A program made the translations under genes and the position numbers. Positions 41,198 through 54,529 of a DNA stretch of 64,000 bases are shown here, in pieces. The notes beneath the pieces are model-generated. The model made no database searches. It was not told the origin of the DNA and saw only the letters and a program-made list of their open reading frames with translations. The stretch covers positions 1 through 64,000 of the forward strand of contig DASRDP010000124.1 in NCBI GenBank assembly GCA_035652535.1. Direction: 5' to 3'. This DNA is from Chloroflexota bacterium (lineage in GTDB: Bacteria; Chloroflexota; UBA6077; SHYK01). Position 1 is the stretch's first letter, and each line of letters starts with the position of its first letter.

Positions 41198-42352
41198 TCA
41201 GCTCCGCGCCGGGGCCGCGCTCGGCCGCGGGGCCCTCTTCGACGCGTCTCCGGCGTGGTGAATGGTCGCGATCCGGTCGATGACCGCGTCGGCCATCTCT
41301 GTGGTGCCGATTGCCCGTGCGCCAGGCTGCGCAATGTCTGCCGTTCGCAGGCCGTCCGCGAGGGCGCCTTCCACGGCCTGCTCAACGGCGCTGGCTTCGG
41401 TCTCGAGTCCAAGCGAGTGGCGAAGCAACAGGGCCGCGCTCAGAATCGCCGCTAGTGGGTTTGCGAGCCCCTTTCCTGCGATGTCGGGCGCTGTGCCATG
41501 AATCGGCTCGTACAGACCGAGCCGACCGGCACCGAGACTGGCCGAGGGCAGCATTCCCATCGAACCCCCGATCACTGCCGCTTCGTCGGTGAGGATATCG
41601 CCAAATGTATTCTCTGTCACGATCACGTCGAATTCGTCGGGACGCACCACGAGCCGCATCGCGCACGTATCGACGAGGAGGTGATCGACGTGGACGTCCG
41701 GGTATTCTGAGGCAAGCCGCGTCGCCACTTGTCGCCAGAGGCGGCCCGTCGCCATCACGTTCGCCTTGTCCACCGACGTGAGCTTGCGTCTTCGGCCGCG
41801 GGCCAGATCGAAGCCGACCCGGAGCACGCGCTCGATCTCGGCTTCGGAATAGGCGCACGTATCCACCGCGCGCCGTCCGGTGGGCGCATCCCAGACCCGC
41901 TTGGGTTTTCCGAAGTAAAGGCCGCCCGTCAGCTCGCGAACGACGAGGATATCCACCGCGCTCAGGTCTGCTTTCAGTGGCGACGCCGAGGCGAGTGGGG
42001 AGTAGACCCGAACGGGGCGCAGATTGGCGAAGAGCCCCAGCCCTTTCCGAATCGCCAGCAGCCCGTCTTCGGGTCGCACTGGGGCATTCGGGTTGTCCCA
42101 TTTGGGTCCGCCGACAGCGCCGAAGAGAACGGCCGAGCTGCGCTTGGCGCGCCGGAGGCTTTCCGGAAGGAGCGCCACGCCGTGCTGGTCGATGCAACAG
42201 CCGCCGACGGGTTCATAGCTGAAGTCCAATCGGTGGCCGAAGAGCTGCGCGACCGTGCGCAGGACGCGCTCGGCCTCGGCGGTGACTTCGGGGCCGATGC
42301 CGTCGCCGCCAAGGACGGAAATTCGCGCGGTCGCCGCTCGCTGCGCCGTCAT
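41198..42352 (-). CDS. leuB: 3-isopropylmalate dehydrogenase
   Basis: The 384-residue protein begins at ATG 42352, overlapping the leuD stop (ATGA). Family motifs are [31 protein letters not shown], the [11 protein letters not shown] catalytic arginine region, [47 protein letters not shown], and [19 protein letters not shown]-type closing segments. It oxidises and decarboxylates 3-isopropylmalate with NAD in leucine synthesis. The C-terminal ~35 residues form a Pro/Ala-rich tail that is longer than usual. Confidence 0.95.
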
Positions 42353-42972
42353 CGGGCACCCGCGGCGGGGAAGCCATTGAGGTAGGGGAGCCGCGACGCG
42401 ACTTGCCGCACCTTATCGGCGTTTGACGCGAGGACCGCCGTCGAGTCCCAATATCCCTGCGTCAACGCCACGCGAACGGTCTCGGGCAGACCGATGGGCG
42501 CTGTTTTCCCCGATGCCGTCAGGGTCCGCTGTTCGAGATCGATGGCGATTTCGACTGTCGGGTCCTCTCCCACCAGGTCCATCAGGCGCTGAACGTCGGC
42601 CGGCGCGGCGGTCACAACCGGAAGCCCGATGGCAAGGCTGTTGCCGGCGAAGATCTCCGCGAACGATTCGCCAACGATCGCGCGAATGCCCCAGCGTAGC
42701 AGCGCCTGCGGAGCGTGCTCGCGCGATGATCCGCAGCCGAAGTTGGCGTTTACGAGCAGGATCGATGCGCCGCGGTACCGAGGGTCGTTGAAGGGGTGTT
42801 GCCGGGCGTTGCCCGTTTCATCAAACCGCTCGTCGATGAATGGATATTCGCCCATGCGCTCGAACGTCACTTCCTTGAGGTAACGCGCGGGGACGATACG
42901 GTCTGTATCGATATCGTTGCCGCGGACGGCGACGCCGGTGCCCGTGATCCTGACGATCCGCCTGCTTTCCAT
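42349..42972 (-). CDS. leuD: 3-isopropylmalate dehydratase small subunit
   Basis: Translation begins at ATG 42972, overlapping the leuC stop by ATGA. The 207 residues show [49 protein letters not shown] (the swivelling-domain signature), and [21 protein letters not shown]. With LeuC it isomerises 2-isopropylmalate to 3-isopropylmalate. The frame is open upstream to 43338 inside leuC, which is not used. The overlapping starts on both sides indicate coupled translation of leuC-leuD-leuB. Confidence 0.95.
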
Positions 42973-44382: not shown

Positions 44383-45930
44383 TCAGACTCCGACGCCAGT
44401 TTCGACGCGCGCCGGCACGTTCTGGGGGGCCGCGGCGGCCTTGTTGAGCGCGTTGAGGTACGCTTTGGCGGACGCCACGATGATGTCCGGGTCCGCGCCG
44501 CGTCCGTGAAACGTGCGCCCACCCGACTCGATACGCACGGAGACTTCGCCCAGCGCATCGATCCCGCTCGTCACGGAATGGACGGAGTATTCCGCCAGCC
44601 GGACGGGAAGATCCACGATTCGGGCGATGGCACGGTAGCATGCGTCGACCGGCCCGGTCCCGGTGGCCACTTCCAGATGCTCCTCACCGTTCGGCAACCG
44701 AAGCTCGACCGTTGCCGTGGGCACGGCCGGGTATCCGCACGAGACCTGGAGCCGCAAGACCTGATACAGCTCGGGTACCGCGATCATCTCGTCCGCGAGG
44801 ATTGCTTCCAGGTCCTTGCTGGTAATCTCCTTCTTCTTGTCCGCGATCGCCTTCAGTCGAGCGATCGCTCGGTTCAGCTCCTCATCGCTGAGCTGGTAGC
44901 CCAGGTCCTCGAAGTGCTTGCGCAGCGCGGCGCGACCGGAGTGCTTGCCCAGAACGAAGGTGCTATCGAGCAACCCGACGGCGCGCGGGTCCATGATCTC
45001 GTACGTGGAACGGTCCTTGATCAAACCGTCGGTGTGAATCCCTGACTCGTGAGCGAAGGCATTCGAGCCGACCACCGCTTTGTTGGGCTGCACCACGATC
45101 TGAGTCAGGTTCGAGACCAGGCGGCTGGTCTTGTAGATCTGGTTCGTGTCGATACGGGTCTCGACGTGATAGACGTCGGCCCGCGTTTTTGTCGCCATGA
45201 CGATCTCTTCCAGCGCGGCGTTGCCGGCTCGCTCGCCGATGCCATTGATCGTGCATTCGACCTGCCGTGCGCCCGCCTGAACGGCAGCCAGGGAGTTGGC
45301 GACCGCCATACCCAGATCGTCGTGGCAGTGGACAGAGATCACCGCTTTGTCCGCGTTCGGCACGCGCTCCCGGATCGCGGTGATCAGCCGCCCGAATTCC
45401 GCGGGCGTCGTATAGCCCACCGTGTCTGCGATGTTGATGGTCGTCGCGCCCGCATCGATCACGGCCTCCAGCATGCGGAAGAGGTACTCGACGTCGGAGC
45501 GCGTCGCATCCATGGGCGAGAACTCGACGTCCGAGAGGTACTTCTTTGCGCGCTTCACCATGGCCACGGCGTGATCGAGCGCCTGCTCGCGCGTCATGCG
45601 GAACTGCTTCTGGAGATGGATGTCCGACGTCGAGATGAAGGTGTGCAGACGAACGTTCTCACCCGCGGAGAGGGACTCCCAGGCGACGTCGATATCCTCC
45701 GGTTTGCAGCGCGCGAGGCCCGCGATCACCGGTCCCTTGACCTGCTTGGCGATGCGCTCGACAGCGGCAGCGTCGTCCGGGGACGCGATAGGGAAGCCAG
45801 CCTCGACGATGTCCACGCCGAGATCCGCAAGCTGGAGCGCGACTTCCAGCTTCTCGTCGGATGTAAGGGACGCGCCGGGCGACTGCTCGCCATCGCGCAG
45901 CGTGGTGTCGAAGATATACAGACGGTCCAT
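44383..45930 (-). CDS. leuA: 2-isopropylmalate synthase
   Basis: The 515-residue protein has the TIM-barrel catalytic domain ([62 protein letters not shown] with His metal ligands, [25 protein letters not shown]) and the C-terminal LeuA allosteric domain ([14 protein letters not shown] to [22 protein letters not shown]) that mediates leucine feedback. It condenses acetyl-CoA and 2-oxoisovalerate, committing carbon to leucine. The presence of the complete regulatory domain means feedback inhibition is likely, besides T-box control of the whole operon. Confidence 0.95.
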
Positions 45931-46032: not shown

Positions 46033-47034
46033 TCAATGGTCTCCCTTCTTGAGCCAGGTCATCATGGAGCGAAGCTGGCTCCCCACGGCCTCGATGGGAT
46101 GGCGGGCCTCCATCGCCCGCCGAGCATGGAAATTTGGCCGTCCGGCCTGGTTCTCCAGGATCCAGGTGCGCGCAAAGGTGCCATCTTGAATGTCGTGGAG
46201 CAGCTTGCGCATCGTCGCCTTGACGTGTTCGTCCACGATCTGCGGGCCCGCGTAGTAGTCGCCGAACTCCGCAGTATCCGAGATCGAGTACCGCATGCGC
46301 GCGAGCCCGCCTTCATAGATGAGGTCGATGATCAGCTTCAGCTCGTGGCAGCATTCGAAGTACGCGACCTCCGGCTGATAGCCGGCTTCGACCAGCGTCT
46401 CGTAGCCAGCCTTGATCAGCGCGCTCAGCCCGCCGCACAGGACGGCCTGCTCTCCGAAGTTGTCGGTCTCGGTCTCCTCGGCGAAGGTCGTCTCCAGCAC
46501 GCCAGCGCGGGTCGCGCCGAGCCCCTTGGCGTACGCCAGCGCGTTCTCTTTCGCCTTGCCGGTCGCGTCTTGGTGGACGGCGATGAGCGCCGGTACGCCG
46601 GCGCCCGACTGGAACGTGCTGCGGACGAGGTGGCCCGGCCCCTTTGGCGCGATCATGGTGACGTCGACGTCGGGGGGCGGCACGACCTGGTGGTGGTGGA
46701 TGTTGAAGCCATGCGCGAACATCAGCATGTTGCCGGCGCGGAGTCCAGGCTTGATGCACTCCTCGTAGAGGGACCGCTGGGTCGTGTCCGGGACGACGAT
46801 CATCATCACGTCGGCCTCGGCCGCCGCCTGATCCACCGGCGCCACGCGGAGCCCGTCGCCCTCGGCCACCGCCCAAGACTTACTGCCCTTGTACAGGCCG
46901 ACGACCACGTCGCATCCACTTTCACGCAGATTCAGCGCGTGGGCGTGCCCCTGGCTGCCGTATCCAAGGACCGCGATCTTCTTTCCGTCGAGGTAGGAAA
47001 GGTCGGCATCTGTGTCGTAGTAGATGTTCGCCAT
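46033..47034 (-). CDS. ilvC: Ketol-acid reductoisomerase
   Basis: ATG 47034 gives 333 residues (class I, short form). N-terminal [19 protein letters not shown] leads into the Rossmann motif [18 protein letters not shown]. The cofactor-specificity loop is GLYKGSKSW, with Tyr where Arg is common, though the serines and Lys still fit NADPH. The catalytic domain shows [30 protein letters not shown] and [21 protein letters not shown]. It reduces and isomerises acetolactate to dihydroxyisovalerate. The gene follows ilvN and precedes leuA across 102 bases that hold no gene. Confidence 0.95.
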
Positions 47035-47101: not shown

Positions 47102-47623
47102 TCACGCCCACGCAGGTACCTCGCGCGGCGTCGCCGTCTCCTTGCCGCTGCTGCCACGCACCATGGCCACGACGCCGGTCCGGACCAGCTCCTTAATGCC
47201 GAAGCCCTTCAGCAGACCGACGAGGGAGTCGATCTTCTCCGGATCTCCGGTGACCTCGATCATCACCGAACCCAGCGCCACGTCGACGATGCGCGCGCGG
47301 TAGATGTCCACGAGCTGCATGATCTCGGCCCGAGTCGTCGGCTTGCTGGTGACCTTGATGAGCGCCAGCTCGCGCACGACGGGCTGATCCTCCGAGAGGT
47401 CCGAGACCTTCCGGACCTCGACGACCTTGTAGAGCTGCTTCACGACCTGCTCGACCGCCGTCCTGGATCCATCCACGACGATGGTGAGCCGCATCATGTC
47501 CTGGACGTCGGTCTGGCCGATGGTCAGCGACTCAATGACGAAGCCCCGGGAGCGAAAGAGGCTGATGACCCGATTGAACGTGAACGGGTTGTTGTCCATT
47601 GTCGCCACGAGTGTGTGTTTCAA
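47102..47623 (-). CDS. ilvN: Acetolactate synthase small (regulatory) subunit
   Basis: The 173-residue protein begins at ATG 47623: [27 protein letters not shown]. This is the ACT domain of the acetolactate synthase regulatory subunit. The second domain continues ([34 protein letters not shown]). It confers valine feedback inhibition and boosts the activity of IlvB. The first 92 bases of this gene are also read in another frame as the C-terminal end of ilvB. This overlap is long, but the ilvN start is supported by the normal ACT N-terminus. Confidence 0.94.
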
Positions 47624-49289
47624 AGGGGATCACCTCCGCGAGTGCCGTCCCGGGCACCACCATGGGGAACACGTTTTCCGCTGGGTCGATGAGGAATTCG
47701 ATGAGGGCCGGTCCCGGCTGGTCCATCGCCCACTTGACGGCCTGCGCCACGCCCGCGGGGTCCTCGACCTGGCGGGCCGGAATGCTGTACGCGTCCGCCA
47801 GCTTGAGGAAGTCCACCGAGTCGGACAGGTCGACCTCGACGTAGTTCCCCTTGTAGAAGAGCTCCTGCCACTGCCGGACCATGCCCAGGTAGTGGTTGTT
47901 GAAGAGGGCGATCTTGAGGTCGAGGCGGTGCTTCTTCACAACCGCCAGCTCCTGGCTGGTCATCTGGAAGCCGCCGTCTCCGGCGCAGCACCAGACCGTT
48001 TCGTCTGGCCGCGCGTACTTCACGCCGATGGCGGCCGGGAGGGAGTACCCCATGGTGCCCAGGCCGCCCGATGAGATGTGCGTATTCGTGCCCAGGAACC
48101 CGAACTCCTGCGCCGCGAACATTTGGTGCTGGCCCACGTCCGTGGTGACGATGGCGCGTCCGCCCGTCGCCCGCCACAGCTCGCGGAGCACGTGCCGATG
48201 CGATAGCCGGCCGTCTTTCGGCGGCTCGGGGATGGGAAATTGCTGCCGAAGGTGGTCGATGTGTTCGATCCATGGCGCTCGGTCGACGCACTCTCCGATC
48301 TCCTCGAGCACCGCGCGCAGCGCTTTCTTGCAGTCCGCGACAATGGGCACATCCGCCCGGACGTTCTTGCCGATCTCCGCCGGGTCGATATCCATGTGGA
48401 TGATTTTGGCGTGCGGGGCGAAGGCCGAGTACTTGCCCATGGCGCGGTCGTCAAAGCGGATCCCCACACCGATGATGAGGTCTGCCTGATCGACCGCGTG
48501 GCACGCGTACGCCGTGCCGTGCATGCCCATCATGCCGAGATAGAGCGGGTGGTCCGCCGGAAAGTTGCTGAGCCCGAGGAGCGTGTTCACGACCGGGATG
48601 TTGGTCGTGTTCGCCAACTCCAGCAGCTCGTCCCACGCGCGCGAGATGATCACGCCGTGCCCGGCGATGATGACTGGCCGATGCGCATCCTCGATCAGGC
48701 GCGCCGCCTTGCGGACCTGCACCATATTCGGCTGCGTCGTGGGGTTATAGCCGGGCATGGAGACGCGGGTGGGATAGGCGAACTCGGCTTCTTTTTGGAG
48801 CACATCCTTTGGCACGTCAACCAGGACCGGACCCGGGCGGCCAGTGCGGGCGAGGTGAAACGCCTCCTTCATCACGCGTGGGAGATCGTGGATGTCGCGC
48901 ACGAGGAAGTTGTGCTTCGTCACCGGGATGGAGATGCCCGTGATGTCGGCTTCCTGGAACGCGTCGGAGCCGATGGCGGCCGTGGCCACGTTGGCGGTGA
49001 TGGCCACGACGGGCGCGGAGTCCATCATGGCCGTGGCAAGGCCGACGACGAGGTTGATCGCCCCCGGTCCGGACGTTGCCATGCACACGCCGACATCGCC
49101 GCTCGCGCGACCGTAGCCGTCGGCCATGTGGGCGGCGCCCTGCTCGTGGCGCACGAGGACGTGATCGATGGGGTAGTTGGGCAGCACGTCGTAGAGGGGC
49201 ATGATGGCCCCGCCTGGGAGCCCGAATACTGTCCGGACGCCCTCGGCCACGAGACTCTCGCAGACCATTTGCGACCCGTTCAACTTCAT
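47532..49289 (-). CDS. ilvB: Acetolactate synthase large (catalytic) subunit
   Basis: ATG 49289 with AAAGGA upstream gives 585 residues. ThDP-enzyme landmarks are FGLPGGAIMPLYDVL, RHEQGAAHMADGYGRASG (catalytic Glu in RHEQ), ATSGPGAINLVVG, VLVDVPKDVL, LGLSNFPADHPLYLGMMG, GDGGFQMTSQELAV with the metal-binding NNHYLGMVRQWQELFY, and FVVEP-like closing [20 protein letters not shown]. The normal end of the family is about there. A further 28 residues run into the start of ilvN in a different frame. FAD-domain and ThDP-domain residues appear intact. The gene lies behind the T-box leader and is the first gene of the operon. Confidence 0.95.
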   Translation of the reverse strand: MKLNGSQMVCESLVAEGVRTVFGLPGGAIMPLYDVLPNYPIDHVLVRHEQGAAHMADGYGRASGDVGVCMATSGPGAINLVVGLATAMMDSAPVVAITANVATAAIGSDAFQEADITGISIPVTKHNFLVRDIHDLPRVMKEAFHLARTGRPGPVLVDVPKDVLQKEAEFAYPTRVSMPGYNPTTQPNMVQVRKAARLIEDAHRPVIIAGHGVIISRAWDELLELANTTNIPVVNTLLGLSNFPADHPLYLGMMGMHGTAYACHAVDQADLIIGVGIRFDDRAMGKYSAFAPHAKIIHMDIDPAEIGKNVRADVPIVADCKKALRAVLEEIGECVDRAPWIEHIDHLRQQFPIPEPPKDGRLSHRHVLRELWRATGGRAIVTTDVGQHQMFAAQEFGFLGTNTHISSGGLGTMGYSLPAAIGVKYARPDETVWCCAGDGGFQMTSQELAVVKKHRLDLKIALFNNHYLGMVRQWQELFYKGNYVEVDLSDSVDFLKLADAYSIPARQVEDPAGVAQAVKWAMDQPGPALIEFLIDPAENVFPMVVPGTALAEVIPFETHTRGDNGQQPVHVQSGHQPLSLPGLRH

Positions 49290-49322: not shown

Positions 49323-49356
49323 AAAAAAGCTCTCATCCCCCTGTCGGGACGAGAGC
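49323..49356 (-). terminator. Intrinsic terminator within the T-box leader
   Basis: Reading the minus strand, GCTCTCGTCCC pairs with GGGGATGAGAGC across a GACA loop, followed by six T. It is the attenuator arm competing with the antiterminator formed by the GGGTGGTACCGCG element. Confidence 0.9.
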
Positions 49357-49585
49357 TGACCTCGCGGTACCACCCAACTTCTCCGATCGAATCGGAGCGC
49401 TCGACGGCAGGATAACGGCTGCCATCCCGGCGAGAACTACGGCCCGTCAGGGCTTCGCGCTCGCGGCTCCAGGGCGAGTTCTGCGATGGTGGGTCGCCGG
49501 CTTTTCAGCTCACGCCGGCTCTCTGGAGACCCAGCCGCGTCGCGTACTACTCCCTATCACGGCCTGGTCGCGGATATAGAACTGT
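49323..49585 (-). promoter_or_regulatory. T-box leader (tRNA-Leu responsive) of the ilv-leu operon
   Basis: On the minus strand the T-box core GGGTGGTACCGCG lies at 49375-49363. It is followed by a terminator hairpin with a run of T (49356-49323). Stem I includes GGGAGTAGTACGCG at the 5' side (about 49555) and CCAGAGAGCCGG / GCTGAAAAGCCGGC as the distal loop motifs. The specifier, in the conserved GAA-NNN context, reads CTC (49478-49476), a leucine codon decoded by tRNA-Leu(GAG). Uncharged tRNA-Leu would favour the antiterminator and allow ilvB and the following genes to be read. The CUC reading matches the classical ilv-leu T-box of Bacillus. Confidence 0.93.
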
Positions 49586-49591
49586 TGCGCG

Positions 49592-49621
49592 AGTGTAGCA
49601 TGGCTGAAGAGGAGGCGTCAA
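49592..49621 (-). promoter_or_regulatory. Promoter of the ilv-leu T-box transcript
   Basis: Reading the minus strand, TTGACG (49621-49616) and TACACT (49597-49592) are separated by 18 bases, with a TGC extension before the -10. Transcription would begin near 49585, just upstream of stem I of the T-box. Confidence 0.72.
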
Positions 49622-49926
49622 ACACGCCCGTCCGGTCGGTTTAAGTTTTGAGGCAACACGACACGCCACGTCACGCGGGGGTTATGACGCGGCAGTGTGG
49701 GAGTCCGAGAGGTCCGGGCGACGATGGAGCCGATGTGGCGAAGCTGTCCATCGATGAGTTCGTGCGTCTTGAGGAGACGAAGCCGTGTCGCGAGGACATT
49801 TGTGGGAAGGTTCACCAGAAGCCAGGGACCGAACCGCTGTTGCTGTTGGGCGATGACACGCTCGACGGCGTAGCTGTCCTCCCCGGGGTTCACGCTGAAG
49901 GTCGCTGAGATCTTCCAAGCCGCCAA
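49618..49926 (-). CDS. Small open frame of unknown function, possibly a gene remnant
   Basis: A 102-residue frame starting at TTG 49926, with GC-rich third positions that look coding and a sequence (ISATFSVNPGEDSYAVERV, RFGPWLLVNLPTNVLATRL) I do not recognise. It has no ribosome site. Its stop lies at the -35 of the T-box promoter. It occupies the gap between the restriction-modification island and the branched-chain operon, so it may be a remnant of a gene truncated when the island entered. It could also be a chance frame; the opposite strand carries a weaker 86-residue frame over the same stretch. Confidence 0.3.
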   Translation of the reverse strand: MAAWKISATFSVNPGEDSYAVERVIAQQQQRFGPWLLVNLPTNVLATRLRLLKTHELIDGQLRHIGSIVARTSRTPTLPRHNPRVTWRVVLPQNLNRPDGRV

Positions 49927-49986: not shown

Positions 49987-50991
49987 TCAGATCGTTCCTC
50001 GTTCGAGCCTACTAACCAGACCTGGCATTCCATGCTCGCGCAGTATTTCGAAGAAATATGTGAGCGAATGCAGGTCGCTCTTCAGTGAGAAATGCATGTC
50101 GAGCTCGGCGCCACGATAGTTGCGGGCGAATGCTCTGACACGGAGCGCGTAGGCCCGCTCGAAGAGGTTGCGTCTGAGCAACTCGTCCGCCCTTCTGGCA
50201 GACAAGACGTACCACTTAGCTTCCCGGATTCGCGGGGTGAAACTATTGACAGCGGTCTCGAACCCGAAATCCGCCGGCGACGACGTAATGCGCTCGACTA
50301 TTTGGTCCTCGACTGCTCGAACGCCGCGCAGCCGCGGTGATTCGCGAACGAGTACGCAAAGATCCACAACGCTGTCGGGGATCAGGGCTCCTACGTCTGA
50401 TCCAGCGAGGCCGGGCACGTCGACAATTACGAAAATGTACGGAAGATGCTCGCTTTCCTGCTTCTGCAAGGCGGCGTGGATCTTGTACGTAGCAAGGGCA
50501 AAACAGTCTTCGGGATCGAGCCCTACCAGCTCCTTGGCGCGGCGAAACATCGATCCGTGGAATTTGATATTTATTCGGAACACTTGCCGCCCGCTCCCGT
50601 TGAACACGAGGTAGTCGGTGTCGCCGCGTGCTCCTCGGTCGTCTCGAAGCTCAAGATCCGCAGATCCAGCGTGCACACGGTAAAGATCTTCGAACACGCG
50701 CTCAGCGAGGTTGCCTATCACGAGTTGGCCGAGGGAGTCTCTTGCGCGGCGCACCGATGATTGCGTTTCCGGAGGAGGCGCTCCCGCCAACTCAATAAGG
50801 GGGTCGCTCGACTCGACCAGCCGTTGAACGAACGACCTTGTCGTTTGCGCCAGTCGCGCTGCATCCGCTGTACTGATCGACCCATTCATCGCCCTCACGA
50901 CGGGGCCTACGGCCTGGAGCGGTCGCGGGGGCGCTGACTCAGGAAAAACTAGCATGAGCAGGCTATTAAGGTCTGCAAGAGTGGCGATCAT
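49987..50991 (-). CDS. Putative restriction endonuclease partnered with the minus-strand methyltransferase
   Basis: The 334-residue protein starts at ATG 50991 in an ATGA overlap with the methyltransferase stop. I do not recognise a named family. The central part (about 95-150) looks like a PD-(D/E)xK nuclease core: [13 protein letters not shown], then [13 protein letters not shown] (Asp124/Asp126) and [10 protein letters not shown], where I-N-I-K143 would be the (D/E)xK strand with Asn in place of the acidic residue. The N-terminal 90 residues may be a DNA-binding helical part ([24 protein letters not shown] resembles a helix-turn-helix). GC content is lower than neighbours. The pairing with the methyltransferase is the strongest argument for restriction; the fold is inferred. 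Confidence 0.55.
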
Positions 50992-51938
50992 TCAAGAATG
51001 AGATGGAGTTGCCCGTTAAAACGAGTCATCGAGGACGCGAGGTAGTCCCCGCGCAACTCGAACGCAAGCCACCTCCGCGTTAGATCTTCCGCAACCGACC
51101 CGGTCATGTTGCTGCCGGCGAAAGGGTCCACCACGACATCCGTTGGGTCAGTTAACAGCTGAATGAAAAACTCAGGCAACGCGCGAGGAAACCGAGCTGG
51201 ATGTGGCCGAAATCCCGCTGCGGCACACGCGCGAATGTAGCTGGAATTACTCTCGTTGTTCCCCCGTGCGATCAAATTTGACGGAATAGATCCTCCGCGG
51301 TCGCGTCCAAACTTCGGCGTGATCACGTGCCCGCTGGGGCGGGTCTTCGCCCGATAGCCTCGTCTGATCAAGCGCTGCATGTCGCCGCTGTACTCAACCA
51401 AAACGTTTCTGTTATCCGCCTTTGGCCATTCGCTCTTACTTAACCACCAGATGTATTCGACCGAGTCCTTAACCCTCTGGCGGCGCACATTTACCCATTC
51501 CGCCGGACTTGGCAGTTTTGCAGGGTTGAACCAAAAACACTCCTGCGCAAGTTGGAAATTCAATTCCTCGCACAGCATCAAGAGCAGCTTGAAATGATAA
51601 AGAGAGCGGGTCGGCGAGCCTGGGTTGTAGCTGCCGCCGATGTTCAGAACGAAGCTGCCATCGTCTTTCAGCACCCGGTGGATCTGCTCCGCAAACGGTC
51701 GGAACCAGCGCACGTAGTCCTGCTTGTCGACGTTTCCATACTCTTTTTTGAAATGCAGCGCGTACGGCGGGGAGGTCACGACAAGATTCACGCATTCGTC
51801 GGGAAGCATTCTGAGTAGCGCCACGGAGTCTCCCAAATAGGCGGCGCCCAATTGGGTCTCGTATTCAGGGGTCACTCCGTGTAAGAGGCGAGAGACGTGG
51901 GCTCGCTTATCGGAGTAGTTGTCAGCCGTTGACGCCAC
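50988..51938 (-). CDS. DNA methyltransferase, beta class, probably N4-cytosine
   Basis: GTG 51938 gives 316 residues. The catalytic motif IV is [11 protein letters not shown] (S56-P-P-Y59), the SPPY form typical of N4-cytosine methyltransferases, with motif [14 protein letters not shown] at about 268-280. The order IV...I is that of the beta class. The target-recognition region lies between (about 130-235). The gene starts 175 bases from a second methyltransferase gene transcribed in the opposite direction. The AT-richer sequence and codon use differ from the GC-rich neighbours, suggesting transfer. The base modified is inferred from the SPPY motif and could be adenine. Confidence 0.85.
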
Positions 51939-52113
51939 GCCGTGTCGCCCACCCTAGAAGACGTCTCGGAGCGCATTGTATCCCGCTGAGTTCCCAATGG
52001 TATCCCATGGGAGTCAGTTGTGCCGTCGGATGGGTAGGGCACGGGCAAATGATGTCGAATTCGGGTCGTCGACTCTCCCGCGGGACACGCCCTGCCGGCC
52101 GTAGAATGGCGGC
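51939..52113. promoter_or_regulatory. Shared divergent promoter region between two methyltransferase genes
   Basis: The 175-base gap has a direct repeat GTATCCC at 51978-51984 and 52000-52006, exactly 22 bases apart (two helical turns). A perfect palindrome TCCCATGGGA (52003-52012) overlaps the second copy. TAGAAT at 52102-52107 sits 7 bases before the ATG of the plus-strand gene, as expected for a leaderless transcript. No controller (C) gene is visible. These may be operator sites for feedback by a methyltransferase; this is inference. Confidence 0.45.
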
Positions 52114-53049
52114 ATGCAGAACGAGGACGTGCAGTCGGTCGTTGCGGAGCCGCAGTTATCCTTTCCCGTCGCTTCTGAGAATACGAATGGCCACGGGCCC
52201 CCTTTCGCGCCCGCTGGGTTGCCCCCGGTTACGGAGCACAGGCTTCTGCTCGGAGACGCACGCGATCTCAGCTTCCTCGCCGATGAATCGGTGCACCTCG
52301 TCATAACAAGTCCCCCGTACTTCAATCTGAAGAAATACCATCCAGGTAACCCGGCACAGCTAGGAGATTTCGAGGACTACGATCGTTTTTTGGACGAGCT
52401 TGACCGCGCGTGGCAGGAATGCGCGAGGGTCCTGGTCCCTGGGGGCCGAATTTGCTGCGTCGTCGGGGCTGTCAACGTGGCTCGGCGAAGGGGAGGTCGC
52501 CATTTCGTCCTTCCCCTACCTTCTGACATTCAGGTCCGGAGTCGTCGCTTAGGGCTCGATAATCTCACGCCGATCATCTGGCTGAAGGTGTCCAACATTA
52601 AGCTCGAAGCGTCGAGAAGCTCGCGGTTCCTTGGTAAGCCGAACCTCCCAAACGGTGTCATCAAGAACGATTTTGAGACGATCGTTATGCTGAGAAAGCC
52701 CGGTGGCTACCGGAAGCCCACGCCGGACATGGAGCGGCTGTCGCGGATCGAAAACGACGATTATTTCAGGTGGTTCACGCCGGTCTGGACGGACGTGACT
52801 GGCGCGAGCACGCAGCGGCATCCTGCTCCGTTTCCGCTAGAGATCCCGAAGCGTCTTGTGCGGATGTTCAGTTTTGTCGGAGATACGGTCCTGGATCCCT
52901 TTATGGGGACCGGCACGACGAGCGTCGCAGCAGCGTTGCTCGGTCGTAATTCCGTCGGGGTTGAGGTTGAGCCGGCTTACCACCACATGGCGGTTGACAG
53001 GTTTGCCGAATCGGCGGGATACGGTAGCGTCTTGGTGACTGAGCCGTGA
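52114..53049 (+). CDS. DNA methyltransferase, beta class, probably N4-cytosine
   Basis: ATG 52114 begins a 311-residue protein with no ribosome site but a -10-like TAGAAT 7 bases upstream. Motif IV is LVITSPPYFNLKKY (SPPY at 66-69) and motif I is TVLDPFMGTGTTS (Asp261), followed by the GVEVEP motif. The central block (about 140-215) is the target-recognition part. It is unlike the minus-strand methyltransferase outside the motifs, so it is not a recent duplicate. Its stop overlaps the start of the nuclease-like gene (GTGA). The pairing suggests a second methyltransferase of one system or a second complete system. Confidence 0.85.
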   Translation: MQNEDVQSVVAEPQLSFPVASENTNGHGPPFAPAGLPPVTEHRLLLGDARDLSFLADESVHLVITSPPYFNLKKYHPGNPAQLGDFEDYDRFLDELDRAWQECARVLVPGGRICCVVGAVNVARRRGGRHFVLPLPSDIQVRSRRLGLDNLTPIIWLKVSNIKLEASRSSRFLGKPNLPNGVIKNDFETIVMLRKPGGYRKPTPDMERLSRIENDDYFRWFTPVWTDVTGASTQRHPAPFPLEIPKRLVRMFSFVGDTVLDPFMGTGTTSVAAALLGRNSVGVEVEPAYHHMAVDRFAESAGYGSVLVTEP

Positions 53050-53783
53050 AGCTGGACGGCAACGGCGAAGTCCCCGAATCTGACACGCTTGACGATTCTG
53101 AATTGGCCCAGGACATCGAGGAGGCCGTCGAGCCCGAGGCGATCGCGCCCGCGGCTGTCCCGTCGCTCACCTTGCAGGACGCGCTCGCCGATTTCGTTGG
53201 TCGAAAGGCCCAAGCCTCGAACCGGATGCTGGCCATTCAGCAACTGGTCGCGAAGACATTGTTCGAAAGGGGCCTGCACATCGGCGACTTTGTTCTCGAG
53301 CAGTCCGTGCCGGGAAAACATCGGACGAAGAAGTGGGACGTGGTCTATTCATACCGAGGCCGAATCCATCTCGCCGTGTCGTGCAAGTCGATCATGGCGA
53401 ACGTCGCCGGCACGGTGCCGAATCGAATCGACGATGCGATCGGTGAGTGTGCCAATATCCATGCCTATGATCCGGGGATTGTTCTCGGGTATTTCTTCGT
53501 GATGGACAAAGCTGGTGGTATGCGGATCAACCGCGATCTGAACCTGCCATGGTATGAGTCGTTCGGCCGAAGCCTCGCCAGCCTTTCCGGCCGACGATCG
53601 CAGCACAACTCGCATGATCTCTTCGAGGCCGCCACGTTGCTCCTCGCCGACTTCTCCGTGCGCCCGTTCGGCGTCGAGTTCTACCCCCGCACCCTCTCCT
53701 GGGACGACTTCTTCGATACCCTCATCGACCACGTCAGGGACCGGAACCCCACGTTGCGCAACCGCCTCGACGCCCCGGCGTGA
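53046..53783 (+). CDS. Putative XhoI/PaeR7I-like restriction endonuclease with altered active site
   Basis: GTG 53046 (GTGA overlap) gives 245 residues. After an acidic head, the core reads KKWDVV (Asp98), then LAVSCKS (Lys114), then a VPNRIDDAIGECANIHAY stretch. This recalls the XhoI/PaeR7I-type nucleases, whose core is KKWDLVV, IEFKS and NNRTEEAIG. In the usual (D/E)xK the acidic residue is Glu; here Ser112 takes that place, so metal binding would depend on Asp98 and Asp129/Asp130. The resemblance is by eye and may be a remote relation. The last ~60 residues become GC-rich in codon use, like the host genes. The call is nuclease-like, not proven active. Confidence 0.6.
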   Translation: MKLDGNGEVPESDTLDDSELAQDIEEAVEPEAIAPAAVPSLTLQDALADFVGRKAQASNRMLAIQQLVAKTLFERGLHIGDFVLEQSVPGKHRTKKWDVVYSYRGRIHLAVSCKSIMANVAGTVPNRIDDAIGECANIHAYDPGIVLGYFFVMDKAGGMRINRDLNLPWYESFGRSLASLSGRRSQHNSHDLFEAATLLLADFSVRPFGVEFYPRTLSWDDFFDTLIDHVRDRNPTLRNRLDAPA

Positions 53784-54529
53784 GCCCCATGGCCGCGACC
53801 TACTCTGAGGAGCGCGATGGCCCCGCGCTCCTTCAACAGATCGATGCTCTCCCGTGGGATCGGATCGCGTCGGACCTCGACACGTTCGGCGCTGCGCCCA
53901 TCCCGCCGCTTCTCGATTCCGCGCAATGCATGCAGCTCATCGCCCTCTTTGGCGACGATGCCCGGTTCCGCAAACGCATCGACATGGGCCAGCACGCGTA
54001 TGGCGAAGGGGAATACAAGTACTTCACGTATCCGCTGCCGCCCCTCGTCCAGGCGCTGCGCGTCGGCCTCTACCGCCACCTCGCCCCCATTGGAAACCGC
54101 TGGGCGACCGCGTTGGGCACCCCGACTCGGTATGCGGATTCCCTGGCAGACTTCCTCGACCTCTGTGCAAGCGCCGGGCAAACGAAGCCGACTCCCCTCA
54201 TGCTGCACTACGGGCCCGGGGGCTACAACTGCCTGCACCAGGACCTCTACGGCGCCGTGGCCTTCCCGCTTCAGGTCGTGTTCGCCCTCAGCGATCCGGG
54301 CCGTGACTACACCGGCGGCGACGTCCTGCTCGTGGAGCAGCGGCCGCGCGCCCAGTCACGCGGCGATTCGTATGTCCTCGCACGTGGCGCTGGGCTCGTC
54401 TTCACGACGCGCTACCGCCCCGTGGCCGGGCGCCGGGGCTCGTATCGCGTGAACGTGCGGCATGGCGTGAGCCGAATTCGCACCGGCGAGCGCTTCACGC
54501 TCGGCATCATCTTCCACGACGCGGCGTAA
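53780..54529 (+). CDS. 2OG-Fe(II) oxygenase family protein (COG3826-like)
   Basis: GTG 53780 overlaps the nuclease stop (GTGA), giving 249 residues; ATG 53789 is equally plausible. The double-stranded beta-helix shows the Fe ligands His152-x-Asp154 in CLHQDLYGAVAFPLQV, and the distal His and 2OG-binding Arg in RVNVRHGVSRIRTGERFTLGIIFHD. The GEYKYFTYPLPPLVQALR stretch marks the group of uncharacterised prolyl-hydroxylase-like dioxygenases found widely in GC-rich bacteria. The substrate is unknown. Codon use is that of the host, unlike the preceding methyltransferase, so this may be an old neighbour and not part of the island. Confidence 0.8.
   Translation: MSPMAATYSEERDGPALLQQIDALPWDRIASDLDTFGAAPIPPLLDSAQCMQLIALFGDDARFRKRIDMGQHAYGEGEYKYFTYPLPPLVQALRVGLYRHLAPIGNRWATALGTPTRYADSLADFLDLCASAGQTKPTPLMLHYGPGGYNCLHQDLYGAVAFPLQVVFALSDPGRDYTGGDVLLVEQRPRAQSRGDSYVLARGAGLVFTTRYRPVAGRRGSYRVNVRHGVSRIRTGERFTLGIIFHDAA

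What the first reader, a model, noticed from the sequence alone, without database searches (positions are those of the whole stretch)
49323..49621. Leu-specifier T-box governing an eight-gene ilv-leu-crp run
A full T-box leader with promoter, CTC specifier, antiterminator and terminator precedes ilvB. All genes to leuB and a Crp-family gene are tightly spaced on one strand. The specifier makes tRNA-Leu charging the signal for the whole branched-chain pathway, as in Bacillus.
Basis: seen in the sequence. Interest (0 to 1): 0.5.

Follow-up and report, generated by a model that had tools for sequence, protein, structure and literature searches.

The report
Leucine-tRNA switch before ilv-leu operon
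A textbook RNA switch that senses uncharged leucine tRNA sits in front of a cluster of leucine and valine biosynthesis genes, an arrangement long known from Bacillus and here found in what looks like a Chloroflexota bacterium.

Summary
On the minus strand, 49342-49569 is a complete T-box leader (RF00230, 105.8 bits, E 2.4e-22) between a promoter-like site and a 12-pair terminator with a U-run. The specifier is CUC (49476-49478): the same reading rule gives the cognate codon for 15 of 20 tested downstream genes in this and related genomes and contradicts none; GAACUC is invariant in 12 aligned Leu leaders; the genome has tRNA-Leu(GAG) with A73, matching the UGGU bulge. ilvB-ilvN-ilvC-leuA-leuC-leuD-leuB-crp follow on one strand, junctions -92 to +102 nt. 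'Whole branched-chain pathway' is overstated: ilvD and the ilvE-like gene lie elsewhere without a detected T-box, and citramalate synthase has its own Ile T-box. crp follows leuB in 3 of 8 loci where this could be seen, all in one family. It is a new member of a known kind. The unusual point lies outside the window: 12 of 27 Leu T-boxes examined in the class carry a second T-box sequence and hairpin after a single Stem I, against 0 of 91 others. The window's leader is single.

The parts
49592..49621 (-). promoter-like site TTGACG-N18-TACACT with TG before the -10
   Evidence: 9 of 12 consensus matches, not above chance by itself
49342..49569 (-). T-box leader RNA (RF00230), full length of the model
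   Evidence: 105.8 bits, E 2.4e-22
49545..49548 (-). AGUA of the Stem I specifier-loop S-turn (role of the motif recalled)
   Evidence: alignment, coordinates, invariant in 12 aligned leaders
49520..49524 (-). AGAGA, first T-loop of the Stem I apex
   Evidence: consensus named in PMC7583486 (passage)
49503..49507 (-). UGAAA (UGxRA), second T-loop of the Stem I apex
   Evidence: consensus named in PMC7583486 (passage)
49476..49478 (-). specifier codon CUC (Leu), followed by G
49413..49418 (-). CCGUUA, F-box-like motif in the stem II region (assignment from the Rfam alignment and a recalled motif)
49381..49397 (-). stem III hairpin CUCCGAUUCGAUCGGAG
49346..49377 (-). antiterminator with the T-box sequence GGGUGGUACCGCG; bulge UGGU at 49369-49372
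49323..49357 (-). intrinsic terminator, 12 pairs and a U-run, overlapping the antiterminator
47532..49289 (-). ilvB, acetolactate synthase large subunit
   Evidence: TIGR00118 733.8 bits; start
47102..47623 (-). ilvN, acetolactate synthase small subunit, overlaps ilvB by 92 nt
   Evidence: TIGR00119 172.9 bits; start TTG with GGAGGTGAT upstream
46033..47034 (-). ilvC, ketol-acid reductoisomerase
   Evidence: TIGR00465 451.1 bits for the longer ORF; ATG start chosen
44383..45930 (-). leuA, 2-isopropylmalate synthase
   Evidence: TIGR00973 736.4 bits
42972..44369 (-). leuC, isopropylmalate dehydratase large subunit
   Evidence: TIGR00170 611.3 bits for the longer ORF; GTG start chosen
42349..42972 (-). 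leuD, isopropylmalate dehydratase small subunit
   Evidence: NF002458 188.8 bits for the longer ORF, TIGR00171 115 bits just under its cut-off of 116.25; ATG start chosen
41198..42352 (-). leuB, 3-isopropylmalate dehydrogenase, 4-nt overlap with leuD
   Evidence: TIGR00169 461.3 bits
40513..41193 (-). Crp/Fnr-family regulator, 4 nt after leuB
   Evidence: PF00027 and PF13545 in the longer ORF; below the cut-off of every NCBIfam Crp-type model; ATG start chosen

Best explanation
This is a canonical transcription-attenuating T-box leader specific for tRNA-Leu(GAG), heading an ilvB-ilvN-ilvC-leuA-leuC-leuD-leuB operon to which a Crp-family gene is attached. Inferred mechanism: RNA polymerase starts just downstream of 49592. 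Stem I reads the anticodon of tRNA-Leu(GAG) with CUC and docks the tRNA elbow with its paired T-loops. When the tRNA is uncharged, its ACCA end pairs with UGGU and holds the antiterminator, so transcription continues into ilvB. When it is charged, or absent, the more stable terminator forms and transcription stops at about 49323. Shown by computation: family membership, specifier, cognate tRNA gene, competing hairpins, gene order. Inferred: tRNA binding, termination, the extent of the transcript, and any role of the Crp protein.
For: RF00230 at E 2.4e-22. The offset rule (codon, one base, four bases, then NGAGC/T) gives the codon matching the downstream gene for trpS x3, thrS x3, trpE, trpD, trpB-like, ileS, cimA, valS, aspS, metX and leuS (specifiers; genes). 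GAACUC is invariant in 12 aligned Leu leaders, of the 16 Leu leaders that I count in the order (15 read, one by eye). tRNA-Leu(GAG) with A73 and encoded CCA on C115. Terminator -23.4 against antiterminator -13.4 kcal/mol, switching with leader length. 13 of the 58 T-box matches in the order's 16 genomes read CUC with ilvB directly downstream.
Against: No expression or binding data. The promoter is not better than chance by consensus. The base read after the specifier is G, where A is commonest (A 50, G 40, C 24, no reading 4, of 118). Simple MFE folding does not model pseudoknots or the tRNA. Operon ends are not defined. The offset rule was set after looking at the window and some relatives.
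Confidence: 0.94

Rival explanations
1. The specifier is in another register (UCG Ser, ACU Thr or GAA Glu) and the leader senses another tRNA.
For: The Rfam alignment has a one-base deletion beside the specifier, so the register is not fixed by that alignment alone.
Against: The rule calibrated on aminoacyl-tRNA synthetase and biosynthesis genes puts CUC there; a T-box before leuS (G015:C9) has the same GAACUCG; the downstream genes make leucine.
Confidence: 0.02
2. The leader also, or instead, regulates translation of ilvB.
For: Translational T-boxes exist (PMC7583486, section 5). In the MFE fold of the 296-nt leader parts of the ilvB Shine-Dalgarno region pair with the leader's 5' end (49566-49579), with pairing probabilities above 0.8 for several G residues.
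Against: A 12-pair terminator with a U-run overlaps the antiterminator and ends about 16 nt before the Shine-Dalgarno region. The pairing is with the leader's 5' end, not with the antiterminator, and was found in a single unconstrained fold without a control.
Confidence: 0.04
3. The T-box controls only the seven biosynthesis genes; crp, the kinase and the LysM gene are transcribed separately or by readthrough.
For: crp follows leuB in 3 of the 8 ilvB-type Leu loci in which leuB lay inside the fetched stretch, all 3 in one family, with 225 nt between the leuB and crp ORFs in G013. Kinase and LysM genes did not follow crp in those two relatives within the 1.8 and 3.8 kb fetched beyond it.
Against: crp starts 4 nt after the leuB stop in the window. 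No promoter-like site was found between leuB and crp; the only other minus-strand hit is inside leuB at 41620.
Confidence: 0.35

Closest known systems
Bacillus subtilis ilvBNC-leuABCD operon T-box (tRNA-Leu, CUC specifier)
   Same: Single Leu T-box before ilvB, ilvBNC then leu genes in one run (passage of PMC12452182). The CUC specifier paper of Marta et al. 1996 was seen only as a reference-list entry in PMC2494555.
   Different: Gene order leuA-leuC-leuD-leuB here; a Crp-family gene follows; B. subtilis adds CodY control, and no CodY search was made here; GC-rich host, inferred Chloroflexota.
Dehalococcoides T-boxes (Chloroflexi)
   Same: T-boxes in the same inferred phylum (PMC2494555 passage).
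   Different: The three per genome named there for two Dehalococcoides are for ileS, trpE and a trpB-like gene, none for ilv-leu.
Fully tandem T-boxes of Bacillota ilv and leu operons
   Same: Control of ilvB by T-boxes (PMC12452182 passages).
   Different: The window has one complete T-box; its relatives repeat only the T-box sequence and hairpin at the 3' end.

Membership tests
T-box leader (RF00230) | covariance-model match above the gathering score | tested here: met
   105.8 against 93 bits, model 1-219
T-box leader (RF00230) | Stem I with specifier loop and a codon cognate to the downstream gene | tested here: met
   CUC before leu genes; register calibrated
T-box leader (RF00230) | apical T-loops AGAGA and UGxRA | tested here: met
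   AGAGA 49520-49524 and UGAAA 49503-49507; consensus from PMC7583486 (passage)
T-box leader (RF00230) | T-box bulge UGGN complementary to the tRNA NCCA end | tested here: met
   UGGU, and tRNA-Leu(GAG) ending A-CCA
T-box leader (RF00230) | mutually exclusive antiterminator and terminator | tested here: met
   folds of two leader lengths; prediction only
T-box leader (RF00230) | readthrough on binding uncharged tRNA | not testable with these tools
   needs in vitro transcription
T-box-controlled ilv-leu operon | ilv and leu genes directly downstream on the same strand | tested here: met
T-box-controlled ilv-leu operon | single transcript through the last gene | not testable with these tools
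   no transcript data; only weak terminator-like sites inside coding sequence
Tandem or partly tandem T-box | second T-box sequence before the first gene | tested here: not met
   one T-box motif in the window leader and the 420 nt after it

The most novel reading that the evidence does not exclude
In this bacterial class the Leu T-box, and only the Leu T-box, repeatedly carries two discriminator modules (stem III-like part, antiterminator, terminator) fed by one Stem I, always before ilvB or ilvD. The window's single-module leader is a reduced state, with relatives of its own family (G012, G014) showing a second module whose hairpin has lost its U-run. If so, one tRNA-reading stem can serve two successive switches, and the duplicated platform acts as a leak-tightening second gate on branched-chain synthesis that lineages gain or lose.
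Probability: 0.35. Interest if true: 0.5.

Novelty: new member of a known kind. Interest (0 to 1): 0.2.

Why it matters
The window itself adds a well-supported member to a well-understood class. It shows that the Bacillus-type Leu control of ilv-leu also exists, by sequence, in an apparently Chloroflexota lineage; in the survey passages that I read the T-boxes named for that phylum are for ileS and trp genes in two Dehalococcoides genomes (PMC2494555), and a second survey names the phylum without the genes in the passages shown (PMC3766115). The split is also informative: a Leu T-box on the common and leucine branch, an Ile T-box on citramalate synthase. The partly tandem leaders in relatives give natural pairs for testing how partly tandem T-boxes work, which a review calls unknown (PMC7583486 passage).

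Tried and rejected
Crp autoregulation of the ilv promoter: no CRP-like palindrome at the promoter (8 matches with up to 2 mismatches in the window against 15.5 expected; the nearest is 49801-49816) and no inverted repeat overlapping it in 49570-49760. Not supported.

A hidden second T-box module in the window: rejected, one motif in the leader and the 420 nt after it.

A wider Leu T-box survey in named genomes: of 80 ilvB loci returned, 7 were scanned with Rfam and 1 (L134, a Chloroflexi MAG) had a T-box above the gathering score before ilvB. A scan of 39 of the 80 for the exact motif within 700 nt upstream found it in L134 and L177 only. The collection may leave out the window's nearest relatives, as the tool says.

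Literature: the two large T-box surveys that I recall (Vitreschak 2008; Gutierrez-Preciado 2009) are not held, so I cannot say whether the partly tandem Leu leaders are already in print.

Limits of my scripts. The first specifier regex read nothing for two of 58 leaders and a chance codon for L070; the loose version misassigned several. The version left 4 of 118 unread. I read those by eye: Leu (G028:C62, G010:C60), Ile (G002:C416) and Tyr-like (G019:C295:13406). It also read UCG for G020:C15, which by eye precedes a thrS-like gene. The counts '27 Leu, 91 other' include the eye readings. One Leu leader (G010:C60) and one other (G025:C412) have under 250 nt of sequence after them, so a second module could not be ruled out there. 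One search's script dropped ORFs that ran off a stretch, so it missed ilvB behind G007:C82, found later. The terminator finder returns the best hairpin in any stretch and has no shuffled control.

On the required re-check I mended: the class total (129 matches, 11 not fetched), the crp count (3 of 8), the gene behind G007:C82, and the statement on Shine-Dalgarno pairing, for which I raised the translational rival from 0.03 to 0.04.

Full report
What is there. The leader lies on the minus strand. Rfam's T-box model matches 49342-49569 over its full length with 105.8 bits and E 2.4e-22. The finding's coordinates, 49323-49621, are the end of the terminator tail and the start of the -35 hexamer. 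The expected parts are present: AGUA, AGAGA and UGAAA of Stem I, the specifier loop, an F-box-like CCGUUA, stem III, the T-box sequence GGGUGGUACCGCG and a 12-pair terminator followed by a U-run. Folding the leader up to 49342 gives the antiterminator; adding the next 20 bases gives the terminator in its place (hairpins alone -13.4 and -23.4 kcal/mol). The promoter-like site and the number of terminator-like sites are not above chance as such; position is what speaks for them.

The specifier. The Rfam alignment has a deletion next to the specifier, so I calibrated the register. In most of the 58 T-box matches in the 16 genomes of the order a codon can be read one base plus four bases before an NGAGC/T motif (two gave no reading and one a chance reading). 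I set this rule after looking at the window and a few relatives. I then named the first gene behind 20 of these leaders with NCBIfam. In 15 of 20 the codon matches the gene's amino acid: UGG with trpS three times, trpE, trpD and a trpB-like gene; ACC with thrS three times; AUC with ileS and citramalate synthase; GUC with valS; GAC with aspS; AUG with metX; CUC with leuS. Three more (AUC before a second ilvB) fit a branched-chain amino acid but are not specific; of these, the AUC before L070 is read by eye. Two were uninformative (L037, a dehydratase-like match below its cut-off; L047, no match). None disagreed. The rule reads CUC in the window, and GAACUC is invariant in the 12 Leu leaders that I aligned.

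The tRNA. Of 47 tRNA matches in the genome, two genes are tRNA-Leu(GAG). The one on C115 ends in A-CCA, which pairs with the UGGU bulge. The other is on a 4.9-kb contig and has no encoded CCA; with 4.56% contamination reported for the assembly it may be foreign.

The genes. ilvB, ilvN, ilvC, leuA, leuC, leuD, leuB and a Crp-family gene follow on the minus strand. With starts chosen by homology and Shine-Dalgarno sequence the junctions are: ilvB/ilvN overlap 92 nt, then gaps of 67, 102 and 13 nt, overlaps of 1 and 4 nt, and a gap of 4 nt before crp. A Ser/Thr kinase gene (120 nt further), a LysM gene (59 nt further) and a tRNA-Gly gene follow on the same strand. On this strand the terminator scan found only two weak sites, inside leuB and crp, so the transcript's end is unknown.

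What the operon leaves out. The genome's ilvD is on C117 and the one aminotransferase class IV match on C103; the genome's three T-boxes at E<=0.001 are on other contigs. Citramalate synthase (TIGR00977, 730.9 bits) has its own AUC T-box on C93, and tryptophanyl-tRNA synthetase a UGG T-box on C58. So the Leu T-box governs the common ilvBNC steps and the leucine branch, not the whole pathway; isoleucine has its own switch. I did not search for threonine deaminase.

Relatives. 13 of the 58 T-box matches in the order read CUC with ilvB directly downstream. In 8 of these 13 the fetched stretch reached leuB; crp follows leuB in 3 of the 8 (window, G012, G013), all in the window's family. G014, the other family member with the operon, lacks it there. 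The kinase was matched in no relative within the stretches fetched. A weak Crp-like match (39% over 113 residues) lies more than 2 kb after leuB in G007. I infer that crp is a recent addition to the operon.

The unusual point. The class search listed 129 T-box matches in 29 genomes; I examined 118 and left out 11 lower-scoring ones (about 56 bits or less). A second T-box sequence within the leader or 420 nt after it occurs in 12 of 27 Leu leaders and 0 of 91 others (Fisher 2e-9, ignoring relatedness; two of the 27, one of them tandem, assigned by eye). All 12 lie before ilvB (10) or ilvD (2). The two copies are 76-188 nt apart, 126 nt or less in 9 of 12. That leaves no room for a second Stem I in those nine; in the other three (155, 156 and 188 nt) there might be room, but the T-box model reported one match per leader. 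The script found a hairpin after each second copy (no shuffled control). In G012 and G014 it lacks a U-run, in G006 the run is weak, and in G007:C82 the hairpin is weak; in G007:C126, G015, G018 and others it is strong. The window, G013 and G001-G003 have one copy. Fully and partly tandem T-boxes are known as a class with unknown mode of action (PMC7583486, passages). PMC12452182 (passages) reports enrichment of tandem riboswitches on branched-chain genes exclusively in Bacillota. I found no description of this Leu-restricted pattern in the searches, but the two main surveys are not held.

Verdict. The finding is right in its main point and is ordinary in kind: a new member of the Leu T-box-controlled ilv-leu operons. 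The part about the whole pathway is overstated and the inclusion of crp is plausible but unproven.

Noticed in passing
L044, L072, L059, L042, L033, L053, L062, L065, L234, L278, L285, L262 (relatives): Leu T-box leaders before ilvB or ilvD with a second T-box sequence and hairpin 76-188 nt after the first and no second T-box match; absent from the 91 non-Leu T-boxes examined.
   Followed up: partly
window 49987-54529: Restriction-modification-like cluster just upstream of the operon: two Type II-like DNA methyltransferases (50988-51938 minus, 52114-53049 plus), a weak restriction-enzyme match (53046-53783 plus, E 0.0014), an unmatched 334-aa ORF (49987-50991 minus) and an Oxygenase-NA family protein (53780-54529 plus).
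   Followed up: partly
window 47532-47623: ilvN starts inside ilvB with a 92-nt overlap and a good Shine-Dalgarno sequence; the same 92-nt overlap appears in G014 and G009, and G013 has none.
   Followed up: partly
L134:8649-9068: A named Chloroflexi MAG has a 420-nt T-box match before ilvB that by eye spans a degraded first module and an intact second one.
   Followed up: no
L035 (G000:C93): Citramalate synthase under an Ile (AUC) T-box in the window's own genome.
   Followed up: partly
L131 and L133: Two tRNA-Leu(GAG) genes in the assembly; the one on short contig C148 lacks an encoded CCA and may be contamination.
   Followed up: no
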